From: Tillus elongatus
Taxonomy: Eukaryota; Arthropoda; Insecta; Coleoptera; Cleridae
Direction: 5' to 3'
DNA length: 64,000 bases
Assembly (NCBI GenBank): GCA_964006375.1
Contig: OZ023267.1
Coordinates: 21,945,739 to 22,009,738 of the forward strand
Below the pieces are notes generated by a model. It saw only the letters and a list, made by a program, of their open reading frames with translations. It did not search any database and was not told the origin of the DNA. Both the position numbers and the translations under genes were made by a program. This document shows, in pieces, positions 1 through 51,590 of the stretch (positions are counted from its first letter, which is position 1; every line of letters begins with the position of its first letter).

Positions 1-477
1 TCGTCTAGCAGTAGTGTGACGTTTATTTGTATTCAGAAAAGATGTCGTGTCTTTCTAGTCCCCTTAGCATCTGGCGACCGTCCTATGCCATCAAATAAGG
101 AGCATCATATTTCACTGAGGACTTAAGAATTTCCATTTTAATCTTTGCTGCCCTTATATTTTCTCTAGAATGTTTCTAACTTCATCCTCTTTGAACTACA
201 CTCTCAGAGGCGTTTAATTACAGTAACTTTGATTACCGGCCTTTATAATCCAGCTGTATTCATTTATCAAAGATCTATAGCCAGACATAATGAACTTACA
301 GTCTATATACTATACACACTCACGGCGGTAACCTCTTAAAAGATAAAGTTACTATTTACCAAACAATGCAAACTAATCAAAGACGTGATAGTGGCGAGAA
401 GCTTGTTGATTTTTATGTAACAAATCACCGGCGCTAACAAGATTGGATGATGCGACCATAATAAGCATAAGTACGCT
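1..477. other. Unassigned AT-rich DNA
   Basis: No coding domain, RNA gene or recognisable repeat was found here. The right part (about 300-477) may be an extension of the PLE terminal repeat that follows, because that repeat reads leftward on the minus strand, but I could not match it to another copy in the window. Confidence 0.4.
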
Positions 478-605
478 AAGTGAAGATTGGAACCTGTGAT
501 GAGCACTAATAAGCACACTCGGAGAATCCAAATTACCACAACACATTTAAAAAACCTGACGATCGTTTCATTAATCAAGTTAGCGTCATCAGATGATGAA
601 TAATG
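478..605 (-). mobile_element. PLE terminal repeat carrying a hammerhead motif
   Basis: This stretch shares about 85 bp of closely similar sequence with 46135-46275 (-), 46975-47060 (+), 51360-51450 (-) and 51487-51590 (+). Shared landmarks on the plus strand are CCTGTGATGAGCACTAATAA and ACCACAACACAT. In each fuller copy, a hammerhead-like core lies immediately 5' of this segment on the element's own strand. Penelope-like elements are known to carry hammerhead ribozymes in their terminal repeats, and PLE coding fragments lie nearby (2172-2860). Assignment to PLE is therefore an inference from motif and context. No reverse transcriptase is attached to this copy. Confidence 0.6.
553..605 (-). 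ncRNA. Candidate type I hammerhead ribozyme (HHR-1)
   Basis: On the minus strand the canonical core CTGATGA (592-586) is followed by an imperfect stem II around 585-570. Then come GAAA (569-566) and the palindrome ACGATCGT (566-559), which would be a very short helix III. The NUH cleavage triplet is GUC, with position 17 a C at 558, followed by AGG. One extra base separates the CUGAUGA box from stem II, as in the other copies here. The catalytic core is intact, but stem II has about two mismatches and stem I pairs poorly, so this may be a decaying ribozyme. A self-complementary helix III suggests folding as a dimer. Confidence 0.55.
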
Positions 606-1066
<461 letters not shown>

Positions 1067-1074
1067 TATTTGGA

Positions 1075-2090
1075 AGTTTAAAATGTCTTAACATCTAAGG
1101 TCATTGATACTGTCGGTACATTTTGTTTCGCTAATTAAAGTATCTGTAATCAAATGCTATCAAATAGTGAGGATTCTCTTAAAAACAGAGTAAATTAGCC
1201 ACATTTGGTTCACTCAAGTCAAGAATTTGGGCTAGTGTTTTCACATTTAGGTATTCGAGTCTTGGATTGATATATACTGGACATTCTTGAAGCACATGGT
1301 TAACAGTAATCACTCTGTCACATATTTCACATTGAGGTTGTTGTTGCTGGATAAGTAGGTATAGGGTGAACTTACAATGGCCTATACGAGTTCTTCTAAT
1401 AACGACTTCTTCCCTGCGTGTTAGACTTGGGAGCGTCTTTGGGGTCACTGATGTTTCGATCTTGCAAAGCTTGTTGTCAAGGGATGACCAGTGGGTTTGC
1501 CATTTAGCTTTAGAACTTTGTCTAATATTGGCAATAAGGTTTGAATGGGTTTGTATGGGTATTATTGTGTTTTCTAGTATCGAATTCCGTGAGCATTCGT
1601 CAGCATTTTCATTGCCTACAATACCACTGTGGGAGGGCGTCCAGATCAGTGTGATTGACTTGCCAGCATGATAGAGACCGTGGACGCTTTCTTGTATTTG
1701 AATTACTATAGGGTTTCTTGCATAAAGCGATGCAAGTGAATTAATACAGGTTAAAGAGTCTGTGCACACTAAAGCACTTTTGTATGGGGAGTCGATAAAT
1801 GTGTGGACTGCCCTCTTTATGGCAAATAACTCTGCTGTGTAATTAGGACACTCTCTTTTGATGGGAGATATAACACCGCTCCCTACACCGCGTGTGCTCT
1901 TTGATCCGTCAGTGTACATGATCAGGTCAAATTTATATTTTGATATATTATCCTGAAATAGTCTATTCACACTGTCGGTAGGCAAGGAGTCTGGAACACT
2001 TATATTGGTATTGCTTTTATAAAATAATCTATCAGGAGACTACCCACAGGCAGCGGAGCGAGATTCATACATTTTTTTATTATTACTATA
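1075..2090 (-). mobile_element. I/R1-group LINE, 3' end with RNase H
   Basis: This is the 5'-truncated 3' portion of a non-LTR retrotransposon. It holds the RNase H domain and tail of ORF2 and about 100 bp of 3' untranslated sequence that ends against a (TA)n array. The left flank of the coding part reads on without a stop to about 2040. No target duplication could be identified because the 3' flank is microsatellite. Confidence 0.75.
1179..2040 (-). pseudogene. LINE ORF2 C-terminus: RNase H plus zinc-knuckle tail
   Basis: The translated frame carries a complete type I RNase H active-site set: D in YTDGSKS, E in TAELFAIKRA, D in CTDSL and D in GNENADECSR. RNase H degrades the RNA strand of the RNA-DNA hybrid during target-primed reverse transcription. 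A C-terminal cysteine cluster follows (CEICDR, then HVLQECP), which is the usual ending of I/R1/LOA-type ORF2. The frame is open for 268 codons from the first ATG at 1985, and related sequence continues upstream to about 2040. With no reverse transcriptase attached it is a dead 5'-truncated copy, although its RNase H residues are all preserved. Confidence 0.8.
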
Positions 2091-2095
2091 TTTAG

Positions 2096-2096
<1 letters not shown>

Positions 2097-2171
<75 letters not shown>
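2097..2171. repeat. (TA)n microsatellite 2
   Basis: Pure TA array between the LINE fragment on the left and the PLE fragment on the right. Confidence 0.97.
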
Positions 2172-2174
<3 letters not shown>

Positions 2175-2860
2175 GAAGGCGTTTAGCTGTCCTGTCGTTA
2201 ACGTGGTGATTATTCTCCAAAATATGTCGGGCAACGGAAAATATATTTATAGTACCGTATCTTAATTGTGCTAAATGTTATTTGAATCTAATTCCAATAG
2301 ATCTTTTTGTTTGTCCGACGTATTTAAGGTCACAATCTTTAAAACTTATTTAATAAATTCCCGACATTTTGACGCTATTATCTTTGTCTTTTGGGTTACC
2401 TAGCAAGTTTTTTAAAGTATTTTTTTATCGAAAATGTTAGTTGCAAATAGGTTTTTTTTAACGCTACCTAGGCCGCCCTCGTGAGTAGAGGTTCAAATAG
2501 TAAGCAAAAAAAGTTTTTTTCGCCTTTCTCTCGTTGATTCCGCTAACATTTTCTTTGTTTTCTGCTTGTGAATTCATTCCTCCACTAGGTAATCAATGTA
2601 TTCGTTATATTCGGCCACTTTCTAAATATATTTTAGTTCTTTGGTAAATCTACTCTTCCTTAAAGAAAAATTACTTAACCTGTTTACTAAAAAATTCAGA
2701 CTGGATATTTTTTTGGCGTACGTATGATGTGAGTCATTCGGAATGTAGCTTAGAGTGGTGATTTCCTTTCGATGGACATTGAATTGTAAAGTGTCTTTAT
2801 TTTTGATAGCTAGTACATCTAAAACGGGTAATTTATTATTAGTCTCTTATTCGTGGGTAA
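2172..2860 (-). pseudogene. PLE reverse transcriptase C-terminus plus GIY-YIG nuclease (degenerate)
   Basis: Reading the minus strand from about 2855, one frame gives the PLE thumb-region pattern LPVLDVLAIKNKDTLQF, then VHRKE and SLNFLVNRLSNFSLR. This is the conserved block after the YVDD palm motif in Penelope reverse transcriptases. After stops and frame changes, the end of the fragment reads CDLKYVGQTKRSIGIRFK, a stop, then HLAQLRYG. That is the YIG half of a GIY-YIG endonuclease with its downstream arginine. The nuclease nicks DNA for target-primed reverse transcription. Several stops make it a pseudogene. It is truncated at a (TA)n array. Confidence 0.75.
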
Positions 2861-3217
2861 GTTTTATAGAATAAAATGTATTCTTTAATTTGGCAATAAA
2901 ATCTTCTATTCTGAATATTAAATATATTTTCACGATTAGGAATACCCTTTTGGATAGTTTTCTGTTCTATGAACAATGGTATCAGTTTAATCAGCATCGA
3001 CGTGGCTTTCCAAAAATGCCATAATATATAGGGTGTTTCATTAAGAAAAATGAAGTTTCGTGCAACACACTGTACATTAACACCCTGTATAAATGGAAAT
3101 AATTTTAAAATGTGCACTTGTGGAACATGTCGCTTCGAGAAACCTGCGTTTTAAAATGTAGCCTTAGTGAGGAGCTATCTCCCGTCCTCACACCGATGAA
3201 ACAGCCCTGTATATGGC

Positions 3218-3220
<3 letters not shown>
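2861..3220. other. Spacer with short CAGGGTG-type relic
   Basis: No gene. Around 3031-3092 there is AGGGTGTTTC followed about 50 bp later by CACCCTGTAT. This resembles a tiny internally deleted relative of the mariner-type ends seen in MLE1. Confidence 0.4.

Positions 3221-3279
<59 letters not shown>
3221..3279. repeat. (TA)n microsatellite 3
   Basis: TA array whose last TA directly precedes the CAGGGTG terminus of MLE1. Confidence 0.97.
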
Positions 3280-3282
<3 letters not shown>

Positions 3283-3869
3283 GGTGATTGCTGAGAAGTG
3301 CTCATTAGAAGTTTTTGACCTTCTCATCCGATTTGACAGCTGAAAATTAGGATTTGGCCATTATACGATATTCCCATTCTGATTAAAATAGTTGCACTAC
3401 TCTAGCACTTCCGGTTATACCGGAAGTCGCTACCAACTTCGTTACTTTAAATAAAACACCCTGTATATTTTTGTATTTTCAGAAAGACGATCCAATTTGG
3501 GATAGATTTTATGTAGTACTTTCTGCACCTTGCGTTATTAGTTTCTGAAATATTGGCGATATTTGAAAAATATTTATCACAGCTCTTTTTATAATTTGAT
3601 ATATCCTTGTAAAGTGTAAATCTAGAAAATATATTTTTGAACAACAGACTGCTGGTAACTATGTCTTGCAAAATTATTGGAATGAAAATCTATTTTTTAT
3701 ACAGGGTGTGCCATAATAGTCTGACAAAATATCGAAATTCAAGCGGGTATAACTTGATTTTTTCAAATGGAACACCCTATATATTTCTATTCTAAAGCAT
3801 TTAACAGACATAACTCTGTAACTTTTATTAACTATGTCCTATACCTAAATAGCATAATTTCTGACATAT
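3280..3869 (+). repeat. MLE1 left inverted arm
   Basis: Matches 5775-6365 in reverse complement over about 590 bp. Inside the arm, further CAGGGTG or CACCCTG boundary-like motifs occur at 3457-3463, 3702-3708 and about 3773. All are mirrored in the right arm, so the arm looks assembled from shorter terminal modules. Confidence 0.85.
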
Positions 3870-4255: not shown

Positions 4256-4557
4256 TTAAAAACCACCCACCCTTGTGTAATTTGTCCTCCAGAGTCCAAC
4301 GCACTTGTCAGATTCCTCCTAGCTCAAACATTAAGCAAGTTCTGTTAAAAAAAGAACGTCAATTTATTATGGCCTTATCATTGTAAAAATGTTATAGCAG
4401 AACTATTAAAAAGTAACATGACAATCATACACTAACATTGAATGAATTTAATTCTCATTTATAGAGTAAAGTTACGCTAGATTAGATTATATGCAGTGAA
4501 CGGGGAAAAGAAAACAACTTGTGATGGAACCAGAGCTGAAAAATTCAAAGTAATTGT

Positions 4558-7867: not shown

Positions 7868-8911
7868 TCACTTAATAAGATTCTCAAAATGGCCTCCGCC
7901 TACTTCAATACATTTTTCTAGTCTCAACCCAAAATTTTGCCTCACCTTAAAAAAAGTTTGATAATCGTTTTTCAATATATCACTGGATTCGATTATTCTA
8001 GCCCAAAGTTCATCTCTGGACTTACAAATAGTCTTGTATACTAATTCTTTCAAGTGACCCCAGAGGAAGAAATCTAGAGGATTGAGGTCGGGGCTACGTG
8101 CAGGCCAAGGAAAATCTCCACCTCGACCTATCCATCGGCGCGGATAATTTTGGTTCAGAAATTCTCTGACAGTAAGTCCATAATGGGCAGGTGCCCCGTC
8201 GTAAATGAACCATAATCTCCTGCGCACGTCTAGAGGGACATCTTCCAAGAGAATAGGAAGTTGATCTCTCAAGAAAATTGAATAATTCTCCACATTGAGC
8301 CTTGCAGGAAGTTCTATTGGTCCCAACAACACGTCGCCTAGTATGCCACACCAGACATTAATGGAGAACTCATGTTGAAAATGGTGTTCTCGCGTCAAAT
8401 GAGGATTTCTGCTGTCATATGTGTGAGCATTTTTGAAATTGAAAACTCCTCTTCTTGTGAATGTCGCTTCGTCAGTGAATAGAATGTTGTTGAAGAAAAA
8501 CGGATCGTCATTCTGATACCGACGAATGCGTTCACAAAAATCCAATCTAGATAGAAAATCTAGAGGTAAAAGATTCTGCACTGGTGTGAAGTGGTAAGGA
8601 TGTAACTTTTCTTTTCTGAGAAGTCTACCAATACTTGATTTATTTATTCCAGTTGCTGCAGAGAGGCGTCTTACGCTTGTTTCCGGATCTTCTGCAAGGC
8701 GTACTAATATCTCTTCCTCTTGATGTACAGGACGTCTTGGTCCACCGACTTCCGACTTCGAATTGAAATAACCAGTTTCACCTACGAATACATTAGGACG
8801 AGATGATACGCATCCGTGTAACAAAATGTGTATTTCACGATTTTTCCAACCCTCAGGTGTGAATTTTGTCAAAACTTTCGTTTCAGAAATAATCAATGGC
8901 AGTGAGTGCAT
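7868..8911 (-). CDS. DD41D mariner-type transposase (MLE2)
   Basis: The 347-codon uninterrupted frame starts at ATG 8911. It encodes a Tc1/mariner-superfamily transposase. The N-terminal part shows a helix-turn-helix (residues about 66-100, TSVRRLSAATGINKSSIGRL), followed by the HPYHFTPVQNL linker typical of this group. The catalytic residues are D147 (FTDEATF), D238 (YDGAPAH) and D280 (SPDLNPLDFF), again with 41 residues between the last two. WIGRGG and WPARSPDLNPLDFFLWG are textbook family blocks. It differs strongly from the MLE1 protein, so the two are separate lineages with the same spacing. All active-site residues are present. Confidence 0.92.
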   Translation of the reverse strand: MHSLPLIISETKVLTKFTPEGWKNREIHILLHGCVSSRPNVFVGETGYFNSKSEVGGPRRPVHQEEEILVRLAEDPETSVRRLSAATGINKSSIGRLLRKEKLHPYHFTPVQNLLPLDFLSRLDFCERIRRYQNDDPFFFNNILFTDEATFTRRGVFNFKNAHTYDSRNPHLTREHHFQHEFSINVWCGILGDVLLGPIELPARLNVENYSIFLRDQLPILLEDVPLDVRRRLWFIYDGAPAHYGLTVREFLNQNYPRRWIGRGGDFPWPARSPDLNPLDFFLWGHLKELVYKTICKSRDELWARIIESSDILKNDYQTFFKVRQNFGLRLEKCIEVGGGHFENLIK

Positions 8912-9502
8912 ATTACTTTTTTACATACCTAATTTATCGTATAATCTTCTAAAGGTCTTGTGATCTGGTTGTCTACGACTAGGATATAATTCCAAGTATC
9001 TGCCGGCGGCTCGGTGGCTACGGAAGTTTGATTGCGCATAAACGCAGATCATATCTCTCTTCTCAATATTGCTAAACTCATTATGGCGAGGCATTTCAGA
9101 AATAATAACTACCTACTGCTCTTAATTGAAAAACCATGTGCTTGTAAAATTGACAGATTATGTTTATTGTGTTACGCAAATGACATCCCTATGAAAACGA
9201 AAAACAAAAGATATTTCATCTACTTCATTGACAGTTGTTGACCCGGCCAATCAACTGCTATAGTTATTAGCGCCGTGATATGTCCACAGGAATACATCTT
9301 TTATTTGCCAAAAACATACTTATTCTATGAAATCGAATTAAATCCAGAGAAACTTCCCAATTTTTAGGAATTGATTTATAATTAGAAAATTATGATTAAA
9401 ATACACCGACCTCAATCCTCTAGAATTTTCCATTGGGGTTACTTGAAACAACTGGTACATACACAATAATGTTTGTAACTCCAGAGATGAACGTTGGGCC
9501 AG

Positions 9503-25690: not shown

Positions 25691-26235
25691 AACCTCAACA
25701 CGTAATCGTTTAATTGGTTTACCAAATTTTTTAACCTAATATTTATAAAAAGTAAGTTTGTTGTACGGAAAAGTTATTACTACAATCTAGATATAAAGCT
25801 TTTTGCGGAGAAAGTGGGGTGAGCTTCTTAATTGTGTAGCAGGTATAAAGTAAGTTTTAAACCTGTGGACTGGATTCAGTAACGAGAAAACTTCTTGTTC
25901 AAATTACGGTATTGCCGAGGTCAAGTAAAAATGAAGGTACAACAAAGACTGAATTATATATTGTCTCTAACTTTGGAGATTAAATTGGAGCTGGTTGTAG
26001 AAGTGGTTTTAAGGGAAGCATTTCTTGTAAGATAATCCGATTTGCAGTTGTAAATTCAAGTCAAGCAGCTTATTGTTATCAATCATACTGGTTTTTATAA
26101 TCCTTGGAGGTGAAGCGGTAAAGATATTTTTAGGATTCGTGTCTGAACAGAGCTCCTATGCATTGCATAACGTTTTTCTCTAGATAGACGTGCACTCCGC
26201 ATGCGGTGTTGCTACATACATAATACACTACATTA
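25691..26235. other. Unassigned spacer
   Basis: Nothing recognised before the PLE fragment. Confidence 0.35.
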
Positions 26236-26805
26236 GATAAACCGGGAAAATTAATGAGGCCTATTATTTCGGCGATAGATTCTCCAACATACAATTGGGC
26301 AAAGTGGTTGTCAAACGAGTTTAAAATCCTACCTATTAAACGGAAAAGTTGTTCGGTGCTAAATTCTCTTGATTCTATTGATAAAATTAAAGATGTTAAA
26401 GGTGAGATTTTGATGCCATTTGACGTGGCGTCATTATTTCCTAGTGTACCCACAAAACAAAAGTTGGAGTATTTGGAACAATTGCTAAAATTGAACAATA
26501 TAGGTGAAGACGTCTGCAAAGAATATTTAACTCTAACTAGCCTTTGTATGAAACAAAATATTTTCCAATTTAACAATGAGTTTTTTGAACAAACTGAAGG
26601 CACAGCAATGTGCAACCCATTATCTCCTTTTATTGCAAATCTGTTTAAGAGTAGATTTGAGGCGAATTTAAAAAATAAAAATTGGTATTTCCCTAGAGTT
26701 TGGTTTCGTTATGTCGACGATATTTTTACAGTGTTTGACACAAATATATGTAAGGTTGAAGAATTTACTGAAAAACTAAATAGTAAATTTGATTCAATGT
26801 ACATC
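26236..26805 (+). pseudogene. PLE reverse transcriptase, finger-palm fragment
   Basis: The frame opens with DKPGKLMRPIISAIDSPTYN, the conserved start of the Penelope reverse transcriptase core. It then shows ILMPFDVASLFPSVP (first catalytic D), TEGTAMCNPLSPFIANLF (normally GxxMGxPLSP; here GTAMCNPLSP) and WFRYVDDIFTVF with the catalytic YVDD at 26710-26721. The frame is uninterrupted for nearly 190 codons. It ends where an M segment begins (about 26805), so thumb and GIY-YIG regions are lost. The G-to-C change in the MGxP block suggests loss of function. Confidence 0.85.
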
Positions 26806-44089: not shown

Positions 44090-45560
44090 CCAAGAAAGGT
44101 GAATACATTAAATCAGTTTGCTCATTTAAAACAAGGCAGCTATTGCCGTGTGTGTGCTGTTTGACTTCTATAGCTTAAAAAAATCTAGTTTGCGCTTGTC
44201 ATTACAAAAATGTAGTGGCTGTATGCGGCTATTTACTGTAGGTATATGTTGAGAATCAATAATATGTTTTGAAAATGTAGATTTGTCAGCGTGGTTATTT
44301 CTAAATGCATAAATATATTTTGTGTATCGGGTGTTAACATTTCCAGAAGTTTAACATATGTAGATTGCGTTACAATGTGTACAATCTAATGTATAAACTC
44401 CAGCTTTTTCTTTCGCGTTAAATAGCAAATCACGCGTCGTGTTGTAAGATTTAAAAGCTACCTTTCTATTTGTACAGGTATTTGAAAATTTTGAAATGTT
44501 TTCTGAAATGTTTCCAAAATAAGTTATCGAAACATACCTGTTGTCTTTTTTGTCTCTAATATTTGGATACATTAAATTGATCGCTAATTTGTATTCTTTT
44601 CTCTTGATCATTTTATCTATCATTTTAACAGAGTAGCCATTATTAAATGCTATTTGCTGAATTATTTAAATTTCTTTTTCAAAATTGTTTTGTGACATAG
44701 GTATGGAAAATGCACGATGTATGATAGAATGATAGGCTTTTGTGAAAAAGGGTGACATGAATCGTATGGTATGGTTGTGTCAGTGTAAGTTTTCTATATA
44801 TTGAAAAGTCAAATGAATAATTTTCTACCTTTTAATTCGTTAAGTCTAAAAAGTTTATACAACTGTTAGCTTCTTCTTCTAAAGTAAACTTAATGCTTGT
44901 GTGAAGGTTATTAATAAAAATTCATTTAATTCTGTATAGCTACCTTGGAAACGTGTTAAAATATTATATACGTTAATGGGCAATAAAGACAATATTATAC
45001 GAAAGTTCCGATGTTAAAATTTGGTTTTCTAAGTTTTCCATACATATGTTGGCTAATAAAGATGACAACAAGCTACCCATAGATAGGCCTTGATTATTAT
45101 TAAATTTAAAATAGTTTTGTTTTATACATTCGTTAAAAAGATTCATTGTTTCTTGTCTTTTTATGACATTACGTTCTTTTCTATTAAAACGTTTTCTAAT
45201 AGAGGTAAACATTCTTTATGGGGTATCTTAGAATACATGCTACAAACATCAAACGAGACTAATTTACTATTTGTAGGAATAATTAAGTTATTTATTTTTT
45301 GTGTTAGTTCATAAGAATTTTTAACTGAATATTTTGGAATGTAATTGTATTCTCTAATAAGTGAAACCAGTTTGCTCGCTATCATATGATTAGGTGCATT
45401 AACATAGGTAACAACTGGCCTCATCGGAATATTTGGCTTGTGAGTTTTCAGGTAGCCATACATTTTTGGTGGTTGTGGGGTTTTATATGGCCATAATATA
45501 AATTTTAGTAATGTTTCTATTTTACACTGTGAAACCTTAAGTAATAAAAGAATGTGTTTA
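44090..45560 (-). pseudogene. PLE: reverse transcriptase plus GIY-YIG nuclease, nearly full core
   Basis: The minus strand from about 45550 reads PPKMYGYLKTHKPNIPMRPV, SKLVSLIREYNYIPKYSVK and VSFDVCSMYSKIPHKECL. This is the Penelope reverse transcriptase start with its first catalytic D. After a frame change comes NNQGLSMGSLLSSLLANICM, then a degraded palm region where YVDD should be (NIVFIAH and a stop at 44973). The thumb is scattered over several stops. The frame 44623-44351 ends AGVYTLDCTHCNAIYIC and a stop, with NVNTRYTKYIYAFRNNHADKS after it. This is a GIY-YIG nuclease whose last G is C. The order RT then GIY-YIG is the standard PLE layout. Confidence 0.85.
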
Positions 45561-45829
45561 GAAGAATTTGAAATTACTTTTAACGACAGTTTAATAAACT
45601 TAAAGAAAGATAATAATTTTTGAAATCACTACCCCTATTTATATTTCCTAGACAAAAACAAAAAACAAATTCAATTAGACAATAGTTAGCTTTATATGTC
45701 AGTTTGGCACTTAAAGGTTTTTTTTCATGTTTGTTATTGAATAATTAGTTTAGTAGAACTCACCTTATATATAAGTATTTTAAACTTTTATATTTTTCCC
45801 ATGTAAGTTGTAAACCTTATTTTCTTTCC
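45561..45829. other. Spacer within PLE region
   Basis: No domain. Probably 5' part of the PLE (N-terminal region), too degraded to read. Confidence 0.35.
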
Positions 45830-46037
<208 letters not shown>

Positions 46038-46134
46038 CAACACTCTTTATATTATTAAATTCAAAACTCGTGATTCCCTCTGTAACGAATTTTAGTACGA
46101 AAATTTGCCAAAAAGGAAGTGGATCTTGAATGTG

Positions 46135-46275
46135 GCTTGGACTATGTGAAAAACTGGAACCTGTGATGAGCACTAATAAGTACACTTGGAGAACACCCAA
46201 ATCACCACAACACATATTTCAGAGACCTTACGATCGTTTCGTTGACAAAGTCAACATCTTCAGAGGAAGAAAAAT
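46135..46275 (-). mobile_element. PLE terminal repeat with hammerhead (HHR-2)
   Basis: Same terminal repeat as 478-605, better preserved. It lies upstream (on the minus strand) of the PLE coding region 45560-44090 in the same orientation, as expected for the element's 5' terminal repeat. Confidence 0.72.
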
Positions 46276-46285
46276 TCTAACATAA
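46215..46285 (-). ncRNA. Candidate type I hammerhead ribozyme (HHR-2)
   Basis: On the minus strand CTGAAGA (46263-46257) fits the CUGANGA box. One extra U follows, then a perfect 6-bp stem II GTTGAC-TTT-GTCAAC (46255-46241), GAAA (46240-46237), and the palindromic helix III ACGATCGT (46237-46230). Then come cleavage nucleotide A (GUA triplet) at 46229 and AGG (46228-46226). Stem I can form as CCU/AGG, an internal loop, then CUUU/AAAG. All invariant core bases are present. The extra base and tiny self-complementary helix III fit hammerheads reported from Penelope-like elements, which may act as dimers. Confidence 0.72.
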
Positions 46286-46667
46286 AAAACTAGATCCCGT
46301 ATATTTATATCGCGTCAAGATAAACGAACTAGTCCGAAGTAAAGTTGTCGTCCAAGAACGATCGTTTGTTCATTGCGCAGTGAAACAGGTCGGAGAACTG
46401 CTTTAATCTTTTGGTCGACAAATTTATGACCCTTATCTAATATAGGTATTAAAAGGACCAGAGTTCTTTAAAGAAACGGCACGTTTCTTTTCGATCTAGA
46501 AATTTACTATGTGTATATTGGTTCATGCCGATAAAGACATCTGGTGAGATAAACAACCTAAACTCAACTCATCTCTTTTAAAAATAGAAAACTAAAAACC
46601 AGATGTCTGTCTAACCGTGTTCACTTTAACAAAGGAAAAATAGTTCAACTAAAATACTACATAAAAA
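46286..46667. other. Unassigned spacer
   Basis: Probably still PLE terminal sequence, but without a second copy to confirm it. Confidence 0.35.
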
Positions 46668-46933
46668 CTATATTTATATTGATTTTAATTCTACGTGAAA
46701 ATATTTATATTGACTACATATATACAAAAAACCGAACCGGTATTCAAATCAAGACAAACATAGTGATTAGTATATGTATAAACCGGTCGAGTTATTGACA
46801 CTATATTTATATTGATTTTAATTCTACGTGAAAATATTTATATTGACTTCATATATACAAAAAACCGAACCGGTATTTAAATCAAGACAAACATAGTGAT
46901 TAGTATATGTATAAACCGGTCGAGATATTGACA
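46668..46933. repeat. 133-bp tandem duplication
   Basis: 46668-46800 and 46801-46933 are near-identical, differing at a few bases (GACTACAT/GACTTCAT, ATTCAA/ATTTAA, GTTATT/GATATT). Confidence 0.92.
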
Positions 46934-46974
46934 ATAATTTATTATTCTACCAGCCAAATTAGGAATATTTAAGC

Positions 46975-47060
46975 GGTCAAATGCAACGATCGTAAGGTCT
47001 CTGAAATATGTATTGTGGTGATTTGGGTGTTCTCCAAGTGTACTTATTATGTGGCTTGGA
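46975..47060 (+). mobile_element. PLE terminal repeat, truncated at the ribozyme
   Basis: Starts in the hammerhead helix III (AACGATCGTAAGGTCTCTGA) and follows the terminal repeat to TCCAAGTGTACTTATTA. It is inverted relative to 46135-46275 and lacks the CUGANGA half. Confidence 0.75.
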
Positions 47061-48483
47061 CCTAGATTTGAAAATTTGTATAAAAGTTTTCTAGTCGTAA
47101 TCTCATTAATAAAGCAATTGTTTTCAATGACTAAGGCAATAAAATGAAAATTGAAATTGGTATCTAGCATAAACCAAGGGCCAAATAAAGTATTAAGCCT
47201 TTAATTTACTAATGCGGCATAAATAAAAACTTATGTGTTTCCTCTGACCTGTAATACCCTGGTAAATAATTTGTACCAAAACTCATACATTAGTTAGGGA
47301 TTATTCGTTCTGTCTTTTCAACTTCTATTGAATCTGGCAGTTGGAAAGTTGAAAGCTATAATGTATTCACTACTAGTTGAATTAAAAATTCTCTGGTAAC
47401 CCACATAGAAATTCAAATTCTCAATGTGTTTTTTTTTTCAAGTAAAATATGTCGATTGAATTTTGTAGTATATTATATCACTTTTGCCGTAGGATTTATT
47501 AATTAAAATGCAGTGATCTGTGCAAAACTCTTAAATTTGCATAGTACCCACATCAACATAATTCATAGAAGTTATGGAGAATCAAATAATTCTATTTTAA
47601 ACTCTTGGCAGATATTAAATTTTGCTTATAAGAGGAGGCTTTCAATAGTTTAAAGTCTACAATTTTTTACAAACTCACAAACTCGATTATAAATGAATTA
47701 CTACATGGCACAACCTAAGGTGCGAGTACAAAATACAAAATACAATCTATAGTCGATACATCTATAGTAAACTAAACCCAAATCAAACCCAAATTAAACC
47801 TAAATTAGGGTGTCACATTGTTAATAATAATAATTCCTAGCATAATTATTACACACGTAATGTTTCAGAAGTTAGTAGTATCTACGAAGCACTTAAAGTG
47901 TTTGTATGTGAACATACATACAAAATATAAAACACACGAATACAAAAATATACAAAACAAGCAAAGAATATAGCCACTTAAAATAGAAAAGTAACTTGGA
48001 GTCAACCGTCCTGTGTAAACCAAACCAGTTGACAATAAGATCATCAGCCAATAGAATATAATAGATAACAACAGCAGCATAAATAAACAAAACTGCAAAT
48101 CTTTAAGCATACACAAACCACCCACTCACACAACAAGAATACATATGCAAGCAATTGCAAAACAACACTGTAACACCACAAAAATTAAATCAGAGACCAC
48201 AAGCTAAACCTGGGTAAAGACAAGAGCAACTATCACTGATGTACTCAGTTTATGTTTAGGATCCAAAATTTCAATCGCTTCTTAAATAATATAAGTTAAC
48301 GTGAACTCCCTATTTCGGCCGGAAATTCATCATAAAGTTCTGACCAACATAAACAAAGTTTTTTTTTTGACCAACTGCCTTCCTGCATCTCTTTTTCATG
48401 CAAACTACAATAGAAACACAATTAGTAAAACAGAAGTCACCTGTCTGTAGATTACGAATTCATTCAACGATTATTCATCACTA
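47061..48483. other. Unassigned spacer (1.4 kb)
   Basis: No domain or repeat recognised. Confidence 0.4.
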
Positions 48484-50962: not shown

Positions 50963-51359
50963 TCTAGGCTCAAGGCATCAACGCTAATCCCTGTATAGAA
51001 AAAAAGGAAATATAGGAGCGTTGAGAAATTATCGGATTATTTTTCTTTATTCGGTGTTCTCTGAAGTATTTACATGTATTGTTTGCAACAGGTAATTAAA
51101 CAGTCCCAACGTCTTTAAAGTCTAACACACTTCCCTCCCCAATTTTCTCCATAAAAATTTCACTATTAGCTTTCTTAGTGTTTTTGACTGTCATGCACTT
51201 GCTGTGTTTTATGTACTACACCACGCTATTCCACAAATCTTCTAGTGATCTTTGCTAGTTCTTTTATATTTCTGGTGAAAGCACTGATGACCCCTGTCAA
51301 GTAGGGTTCTACTTATATTTATGCCACTGTGCCTTATAGCTTTCTTCAGATTAGAAAAG
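50963..51359. other. Unassigned spacer
   Basis: No gene. Confidence 0.35.
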
Positions 51360-51590
51360 TACACTTGGAGAACCCAGATCACCACAACACATTTTTAAAG
51401 ATCTGACGATTGTTTTACTAACAAAGCGAGCCTCATTAGATGTTGGCAAATACTAATTTAGAATTAGATTAGAATTTTTCATCCTATGATGATGCTAACT
51501 TTGTTAGTCAAATCTTAAAATGTGTGAATTGGGTTCTCCAAATGTACTTCTCAGTGCTTATCACAGGTTCCAATCTCCCCTAAGTGAATA
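51360..51590. mobile_element. Inverted pair of PLE terminal repeats
   Basis: 51360-51450 (-) and 51487-51590 (+) are two copies of the PLE terminal repeat placed back to back. The minus copy has CTAATGA in place of CTGANGA. The plus copy has ATGATGA, an intact GCTAAC-TTT-GTTAGT stem II (about 51497-51511), and CAAA in place of GAAA. Both ribozymes are dead. Confidence 0.7.

What the first reader, a model, noticed from the sequence alone, without database searches (positions are those of the whole stretch)
46215..46285. Near-consensus hammerhead ribozyme in a PLE terminal repeat (HHR-2)
Seen: on the minus strand CTGAAGA, perfect stem II GTTGAC-TTT-GTCAAC, GAAA, palindromic ACGATCGT, then the cleavage nucleotide and AGG able to pair with CCU. 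Known: Penelope-like elements carry type I hammerheads with very short helix III. Inferred: this one may self-cleave, possibly as a dimer since helix III is self-complementary with no loop.
Basis: partly seen in the sequence, partly recalled or inferred. Interest (0 to 1): 0.78.

Follow-up and report, generated by a model that had tools for sequence, protein, structure and literature searches.

The report
Hammerhead ribozyme in Penelope retrotransposon repeat
This is a small RNA motif of the self-cleaving hammerhead type, carried in the terminal repeat of a very abundant Penelope-like retrotransposon in an animal genome; such motifs are already known from this class of element, but the many copies here suggest where the element's RNA starts and that inserted copies were mostly made from RNA the ribozyme had not cut.

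Summary
The motif is real and where stated (minus strand 46266-46226, cleavage expected after 46229). Chance gives 0.09 per shuffled window. Rfam hammerhead models do not report it. The window's own 1.72-Gb genome has 7,632 exact-core matches, reversed control 0; stem II covaries between subfamilies. The carrier is a Penelope-like element (792-codon ORF, RVT_1 and GIY-YIG). The window copy is a 906-bp, 5'-truncated insertion with head-to-head arms, a 31-nt tail on one arm and a 13-bp target-site duplication; the RT fragments beside it are another, distant element. New here: in sampled insertions arm 5' ends cluster about 16 nt upstream of the ribozyme, 31 nt after a TATA box (probable transcription start), with no clear peak at the cleavage site, so inserted arms seem mostly copied from uncut RNA. 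Hammerheads in Penelope pLTRs are already known. Self-cleavage is untested; the energy model favours a competing fold.

The parts
46226..46266 (-). Hammerhead motif, stem I (CCU/AGG) to stem I: core CUGAAGA, 1-nt insert U, 6-bp stem II with UUU loop, GAAA, palindromic ACGAUCGU (helix III), H17 = A at 46229, cleavage expected between 46229 and 46228
   Evidence: sequence read; chance test; 7,632 exact-core matches in the genome; covariation
46143..46173 (-). 31-nt 'tail' at the 3' end of the arm; absent from the opposite arm
   Evidence: E arm ends where the tail begins; the same asymmetry in 14 of 14 family insertions with a flanking repeat of 9 bp or more, among 18 pairs examined
46174..46225 (-). 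Conserved RNA segment between hammerhead and tail; most of the folded family members predict a branched stem structure; probable reverse-transcription start region (inferred)
   Evidence: folding of six sequences; shared by copies A, B, D and partly C, E
46279..46985 (-). pLTR upstream of the hammerhead plus the last few ORF codons of the PLE (5'-truncated copy); contains a 133-bp tandem duplication (46667-46932)
   Evidence: blastn to L012 3836-4541, about 93-94% identity; duplication
46300..46309 (-). TATA-like box TATAAATATA, about 31 nt upstream of the common 5' end of family insertions (46278-46279)
46975..47048 (+). Opposite (head-to-head) arm E: hammerhead 3' half to the tail-less end; lacks CUGANGA and the 5' strand of stem II
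46130..46142 (+). Target-site duplication, left copy ATGTGGCTTGGAC
47049..47061 (+). Target-site duplication, right copy ATGTGGCTTGGAC
466..609 (-). Copy B: hammerhead and tail of a second subfamily (CUGAUGA, GUC triplet; stem II with two mismatches), upstream of which lie PLE RT/EN remains at 2948-2170
51357..51459 (-). Copy C: degraded hammerhead arm without tail (G5 changed)
51465..51583 (+). Copy D: degraded hammerhead arm with tail, head-to-head with C (C3 and G12 changed, helix III deleted)
   Evidence: 3' end counted

Best explanation
A minimal type-I hammerhead ribozyme in the pseudo-LTR of a Penelope-like element (PLE) of a probably arthropod genome. Shown: the motif sits in the pLTR of full-length RT + GIY-YIG elements, matches thousands of genome places, and keeps its base pairs through compensatory changes between subfamilies; the window copy is a head-to-head, 5'-truncated insertion with a TSD. 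Inferred: the head-to-head form comes from priming on both DNA strands; a TATA promoter in the pLTR starts transcription about 16 nt before the ribozyme, so each transcript carries a ribozyme at its very 5' end and another before the 3' tail. Reverse transcription starts in the tail region just downstream of the ribozyme and runs through it to the RNA 5' end, so the templates that were inserted had mostly not been cut. When the ribozyme does fold (by dimerising through the palindromic helix III, or with help from the element's protein, as reported for an anole PLE) it would cut after H17 (GUA here) and could free one element unit from a tandem transcript; that step is inferred from published work and not shown here.
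For: Anatomy; 7,632 genome matches with zero matches of the backward control; 13,817 places for a pattern that does not ask for the 5' half, and 91 of 98 distinct sampled copies alignable without gaps over it (within 7 mismatches in 27). Stem II: 94.0% of cells paired, 4 of 6 pairs with at least one two-sided change; whole structure covariation score 0.236 against 0.147 +/- 0.011 shuffled (0 of 500) and at most 0.077 when slid. Two full-length elements with 792-codon ORF, RVT_1 E 3.6e-13 and 2.1e-13, GIY-YIG E 8e-7 and 9.2e-7, and HHR-to-HHR spacing of about 3,078 bp. TSD and tail asymmetry. 5' ends at -16, head-to-head gap mode 127. Literature: inverted pLTRs, 31-bp tail, TSD (PMC3846280, passages); protein-assisted anole HHR, two RT start sites, both strands primed (PMC11167929, passages and the whole of main-text section 3).
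Against: No Rfam hammerhead call for the window copy or three family loci. A single base is inserted between A9 and stem II. A competing hairpin that buries the CUGANGA box is favoured by the energy model (free -13.2 against hammerhead -4.2 kcal/mol, and free dimer -32.6 against dimer hammerhead -23.2; -16.5 against -8.7 for a longer piece). Two of the other four copies in the window (C, D) have broken cores and E has only half a motif. No clear peak of inserted 5' ends at the cleavage site, so no genomic trace that cleavage is part of the insertion pathway. No activity data.
Confidence: 0.82

Rival explanations
1. Not (or no longer) a ribozyme in this family: the conserved RNA around the hammerhead and tail is kept as a binding and start signal for the element's reverse transcriptase, and the hammerhead shape is a relic.
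For: Most sampled inserted arms run through the hammerhead to an end about 16 nt upstream of it or further; monomer hammerhead fold disfavoured; the anole PLE inserts equally well with a dead ribozyme in vitro (PMC11167929).
Against: Core residues and a cleavable H17 (A, or C in 85% of subfamily II) are kept between subfamilies whose proteins are about 53-58% identical, if the RT/EN remains at 2948-2170 belong with copy B (position only); stem II covaries; the anole PLE ribozyme does cleave with protein.
Confidence: 0.13
2. The selected structure is a pair of hairpins (UCWUC-CUCU-GAWGA followed by stem II), and the resemblance to a hammerhead core is incidental.
For: The first hairpin is 94.4% paired with one two-sided pair (2.5/N7: UA 21, AU 13, GU 1, other 1 of 36) and is in the predicted minimum-energy fold of the window copy. 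The two-hairpin structure scores higher on covariation than the hammerhead (0.345 against 0.236), stem II being common to both.
Against: The covariation of the first hairpin rests on one pair that separates the subfamilies, so probably one event; it does not explain conservation of GAAA, ACGAUCGU, the NUH triplet and stem I CCU/AGG (98.1% paired).
Confidence: 0.04
3. The motif belongs to a non-autonomous animal retrozyme (short tandem repeats making circular RNAs) and not to a PLE.
For: Many copies are short head-to-head insertions without ORF.
Against: Full-length elements with RT and GIY-YIG carry the same pLTR, hammerhead and tail; no tandem array of hammerhead repeats was seen around the window copy (the 133-bp tandem duplication there has no hammerhead).
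Confidence: 0.01

Closest known systems
Hammerhead motifs in Penelope-like elements (Cervera and De la Pena 2014; Lunse, Weinberg and Breaker 2017; papers not held, titles seen only as references in PMC7761336)
   Same: As described in the review passages: minimal type I hammerhead lacking much of helix III, in tandem in pLTRs, which may cleave as dimers
   Different: Here a pyrimidine is inserted between A9 and stem II in nearly all sampled copies; whether published ones have it could not be checked
PAc, Poseidon of Anolis carolinensis (PMC11167929)
   Same: RT + GIY-YIG ORF; cut site 26 nt after an AUG at the start of stem II; reverse transcription starts 111-118 nt into the ORF there, and the tail ends 115 nt after the same AUG here (my count from the window sequence); two RT start sites define the tail; both DNA strands primed there
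   Different: In PAc the main ORF starts in the hammerhead; here that AUG opens only a short uORF in subfamily I and is mostly absent in II and III, and the main ORF starts just after the tail (L012 1469)
Penelope families of Adineta vaga (PMC3846280)
   Same: Head-to-head inverted pLTRs, optional 31-bp tail on one of them, short TSD
   Different: Hammerheads were not in the passages read; TSDs there 8-10 bp, here mostly 10-14 bp
Newt and axolotl type I hammerheads in retrozymes (PMC7229834, passages)
   Same: Weak helix III capped by a palindromic tetraloop, better activity as dimers
   Different: Those lie in short non-autonomous tandem repeats, this one in an autonomous PLE pLTR

Membership tests
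Type I hammerhead ribozyme (PLE minimal variant) | Core CUGANGA and GAAA boxes | tested here: met
   Sequence; in the 91 alignable sampled copies the fixed residues of C3-A9 are kept in 95-98% (N7 is A or U) and G12-A15.1 in 95-100% (these copies were picked by CGATCGTNAGGT and by similarity to family strings)
Type I hammerhead ribozyme (PLE minimal variant) | A9 joined directly to stem II (consensus form, recalled) | tested here: not met
   One inserted U (C in subfamilies II and III) in nearly all sampled copies. An extra core nucleotide is reported for a viroid hammerhead (title only, J Biol Chem 2001, cited in PMC6155905), so I treat it as a variation of the consensus and not as defining; that it sits at the same place there is recalled
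Type I hammerhead ribozyme (PLE minimal variant) | Stem II with covariation | tested here: met
   4 of 6 pairs change on both sides in at least one sequence, two of them in 11-13 of 36
Type I hammerhead ribozyme (PLE minimal variant) | Cleavable NUH triplet followed by stem I | tested here: met
   GUA in I and III, mostly GUC in II; a few sampled copies have GUG; stem I 3 bp
Type I hammerhead ribozyme (PLE minimal variant) | Match to Rfam hammerhead covariance models | tested here: not met
   a detection criterion and not a defining feature
Type I hammerhead ribozyme (PLE minimal variant) | Self-cleavage | not testable with these tools
   needs bench work
Penelope-like element | Single ORF with RT and GIY-YIG endonuclease | tested here: met
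   L012 and L010; 308 homologous proteins, and among the 120 listed those with a species name are insects and one springtail. The window copy itself has only the ORF end
Penelope-like element | pLTRs in direct and inverted arrangement, optional tail, TSD | tested here: met
   L012 layout; 14 of 18 head-to-head pairs with a flanking repeat of 9 bp or more; window pair 13 bp
Animal retrozyme | Short tandem repeats without coding capacity around the hammerhead | tested here: not met

The most novel reading that the evidence does not exclude
In this PLE the ribozyme sits at the extreme 5' end of the transcript and is normally held off by the hairpin that buries its CUGANGA box; insertion uses the uncut RNA, and the ribozyme is switched on (by dimerisation or by the element's protein) only at another stage, for example to cut tandem read-through RNA into units or to remove the capped 5' end. 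The genome's thousands of insertion junctions act as a fossil record of uncut templates.
Probability: 0.2. Interest if true: 0.6.

Novelty: new member of a known kind. Interest (0 to 1): 0.36.

Why it matters
What PLE hammerheads do in the cell is described as still a mystery (PMC7761336, passages). A genome with over ten thousand matching places lets one read, from insertion junctions, which RNA ends were actually reverse transcribed. The sample here points to a transcription start just upstream of the ribozyme and to mostly uncut templates, which agrees with the in vitro anole result and gives precise positions to test.

Tried and rejected
Rfam at gathering score and at E up to 10: no hammerhead match. 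A scan of viral contigs for the motif: 0. Protein search with the neighbouring RT fragment: nothing at E 0.001; solved structures with three RT/EN fragments: nothing convincing, and none for the L012 ORF. First idea that the RT fragments at 44171-45625 are this element's ORF: rejected, 26-33% identity. First idea that A9-U-G is the start codon of the main ORF as in the anole element: rejected, short uORF only.

Idea that cleaved 5' ends leave a peak at the cleavage site (between +34 and +35, C3 = 0): tested three ways, no clear peak. (i) 3 of 51 anchored arms end 3' of C3, at +11, +38 and +45; the +38 one (L089) can also be read as +36. (ii) 6 junctions in the cleavage bin against 5 in an upstream bin (the two other planned bins did not complete). 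(iii) 80 head-to-head pairs with gap 15-45, against 400 with 61-91 and 1,299 with 110-140; among the 50 listed of the 80, gap 22 occurs 9 times (unexplained) and 26-28, the value expected for two cut arms, also 9 times. For the reading that cut RNA is sometimes used: the 50 listed pairs of gap 61-91 show 13 in 75-79 and 12 in 80-84, against 8, 8 and 3 in 62-66, 67-71 and 85-89, and by eye 5 of the 16 pairs whose letters were printed have a short arm ending within 3 nt of the cleavage site (L089 is one of them): a hint, not a peak. The sample is biased because most loci were picked by hammerhead sequence; one search uses an anchor downstream of it but partly the same loci.

Full report
What is there. 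On the minus strand at 46266-46226 lies CCT-CTGAAGA-T-GTTGAC-TTT-GTCAAC-GAAACGATCGT-A-AGG. In hammerhead numbering (recalled) this is stem I (3 bp), C3-A9, one inserted U, a perfect 6-bp stem II, G12-A14, A15.1, a palindrome that can form 2 bp with a GAUC loop or an 8-bp duplex with a second molecule, H17 = A (46229) and 1.1-1.3. A descriptor search finds only this one in the window, with 0.09 expected.

Copies in the window. Blastn of the region against the window and a profile search find four relatives: B (about 609-466, minus), C (51459-51357, minus), D (51465-51583, plus) and E (46975-47048, plus; only the 3' half). A and E, and C and D, are head-to-head with their 3' ends outward. A and E are the two arms of one insertion, 46143-47048, flanked by the perfect 13-bp repeat ATGTGGCTTGGAC (46130-46142 and 47049-47061). 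A carries 31 nt more at its 3' end than E (46173-46143). No clear TSD was found for C/D. B keeps the core but has two stem II mismatches; C and D have changed core residues.

The genome. The window is G000:C6:21945739-22009738 of a 1.72-Gb genome in 30 contigs. The exact core with GTA occurs 3,801 + 3,831 times, the backward control never. A pattern that does not require the 5' half (CGATCGTNAGGT to TGTGTTGTGGT) occurs 6,812 + 7,005 times. Of 98 distinct copies collected from the fetched loci, 91 align without gaps over the hammerhead (within 7 of 27 mismatches to a family string): 61 of subfamily I (CUGAAGA, insert U, GUA), 28 of II (CUGAUGA, insert C, mostly GUC), 2 of III.

Selection on structure. 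In a 36-row alignment the hammerhead pairing is satisfied in 96.2% of cells; stem II has four pairs with a two-sided change; the covariation score is 0.236 against 0.147 +/- 0.011 shuffled and at most 0.077 slid. Relatedness inflates such numbers, but the main double changes (10.2/11.2 UA-CG, 10.4/11.4 GC-AU) separate subfamilies, and 10.3/11.3 UA-AU arose within I (6 of 91 copies). The PLE protein remains upstream of copy B (2948-2170) differ from L012 by 42-47%; that they belong with B is inferred from position. A rival hairpin (2.7-2.3 with A9-G5) also pairs in 94.4% of cells, with one covarying pair; together with stem II it scores 0.345, more than the hammerhead structure, and it is favoured thermodynamically for the window copy.

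The element. L012 and L010 hold 792-codon ORFs with RVT_1 (E 3.6e-13 and 2.1e-13) and GIY-YIG (E 8e-7 and 9.2e-7). L012 reads: inverted arm with hammerhead (442-476, minus), pLTR with hammerhead (1342-1376), ORF from Met 1469 to 3841, pLTR with hammerhead (4420-4454), tail end near 4541. Window 46985-46141 matches L012 3836-4541 at about 93-94%, so the window copy is a PLE insertion truncated at the end of the ORF. The RT fragments at 45478-44246 are a different PLE (26-33%). Homologues of the ORF that carry a species name among the 120 listed are insects plus a springtail, so the host is probably an arthropod (inference).

Insertion structure. Of 18 head-to-head pairs in fetched loci, 14 have direct flanking repeats of 9 bp or more (9-19, mostly 10-14), and in all 14 one arm ends 0-11 nt and the other 31-45 nt past the anchor, that is without and with tail; two more gave only 7-bp matches and two none. 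This is the arrangement reported for Adineta vaga Penelope (PMC3846280, passages), and it fits the anole PLE, which primes on both strands and has two start sites that define the tail (PMC11167929, main-text section 3 read whole).

Where arms begin. Measured from C3 = 0, 39 of 70 arms begin between -20 and -8, with 13 at -16 and 5 at -15; 23 begin further upstream and 8 further downstream (biased set). With an anchor downstream of the ribozyme, 24 of 51 begin between -22 and -8 (9 at -16), 24 further upstream and 3 downstream. A TATA-like box lies about 31 nt before -16 in both families (window 46309-46300). Genome-wide, 1,299 head-to-head pairs have an inter-anchor gap of 110-140, with the mode of the 50 listed at 127 (14 of 50; 29 of 50 in 123-129), as expected if both arms start near -16; 400 have 61-91 and 80 have 15-45. 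I infer that -16 is the transcription start, so the ribozyme is at the 5' end of the RNA. Arms starting at the cleavage site are not prominent (details and the hints to the contrary under tried and rejected), so most inserted arms seem to come from RNA not cut in this ribozyme.

Mechanism. Best supported: a PLE hammerhead whose activity, if any, depends on dimerisation or protein. Published work on the anole PLE found no cleavage without protein and insertion independent of cleavage in vitro; [quoted passage not shown] The competing hairpin offers a physical reason for an off state (inference).

Novelty. Hammerheads in PLE pLTRs are known. I found no paper linking PLE insertion 5' ends to a transcription start next to the hammerhead in the listings of searches, but the two main PLE-hammerhead papers are not held, so this is weak evidence of absence.

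Noticed in passing
window 45478-44246 (minus): Degenerate RT and GIY-YIG pieces of a second, distant PLE lineage (26-33% amino-acid identity to L012), beside which the hammerhead-bearing copy is inserted.
   Followed up: partly
window 2948-2170 (minus) and 609-466 (minus): RT/EN remains of a PLE 53-58% identical to L012, separated from hammerhead copy B by an RNase H ORF (2036-1179) that may be a later LINE insertion.
   Followed up: partly
window 26233-26799 (plus): RT fragment 85% identical in protein to L012, another copy of the same PLE family.
   Followed up: no
genome G000, 80 head-to-head pairs with gap 15-45: An unexplained mode at gap 22 (9 of 50 listed), spread over several contigs.
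   Followed up: no
window 46367-46358 (minus): A second AAACGATCGT about 128 nt upstream of the hammerhead's own in the pLTR, also present in L012; no hammerhead 5' half was seen before it.
   Followed up: no
window 7868-8920 (minus): 350-codon ORF with weak DDE_3 and HTH matches below Pfam's cut-offs, a Tc1-like transposase candidate.
   Followed up: no
L026 297-395: Near-perfect head-to-head hammerhead pair looks like a long hairpin and matches several Rfam miRNA models below their gathering scores; such pairs could give double-stranded RNA if transcribed.
   Followed up: no
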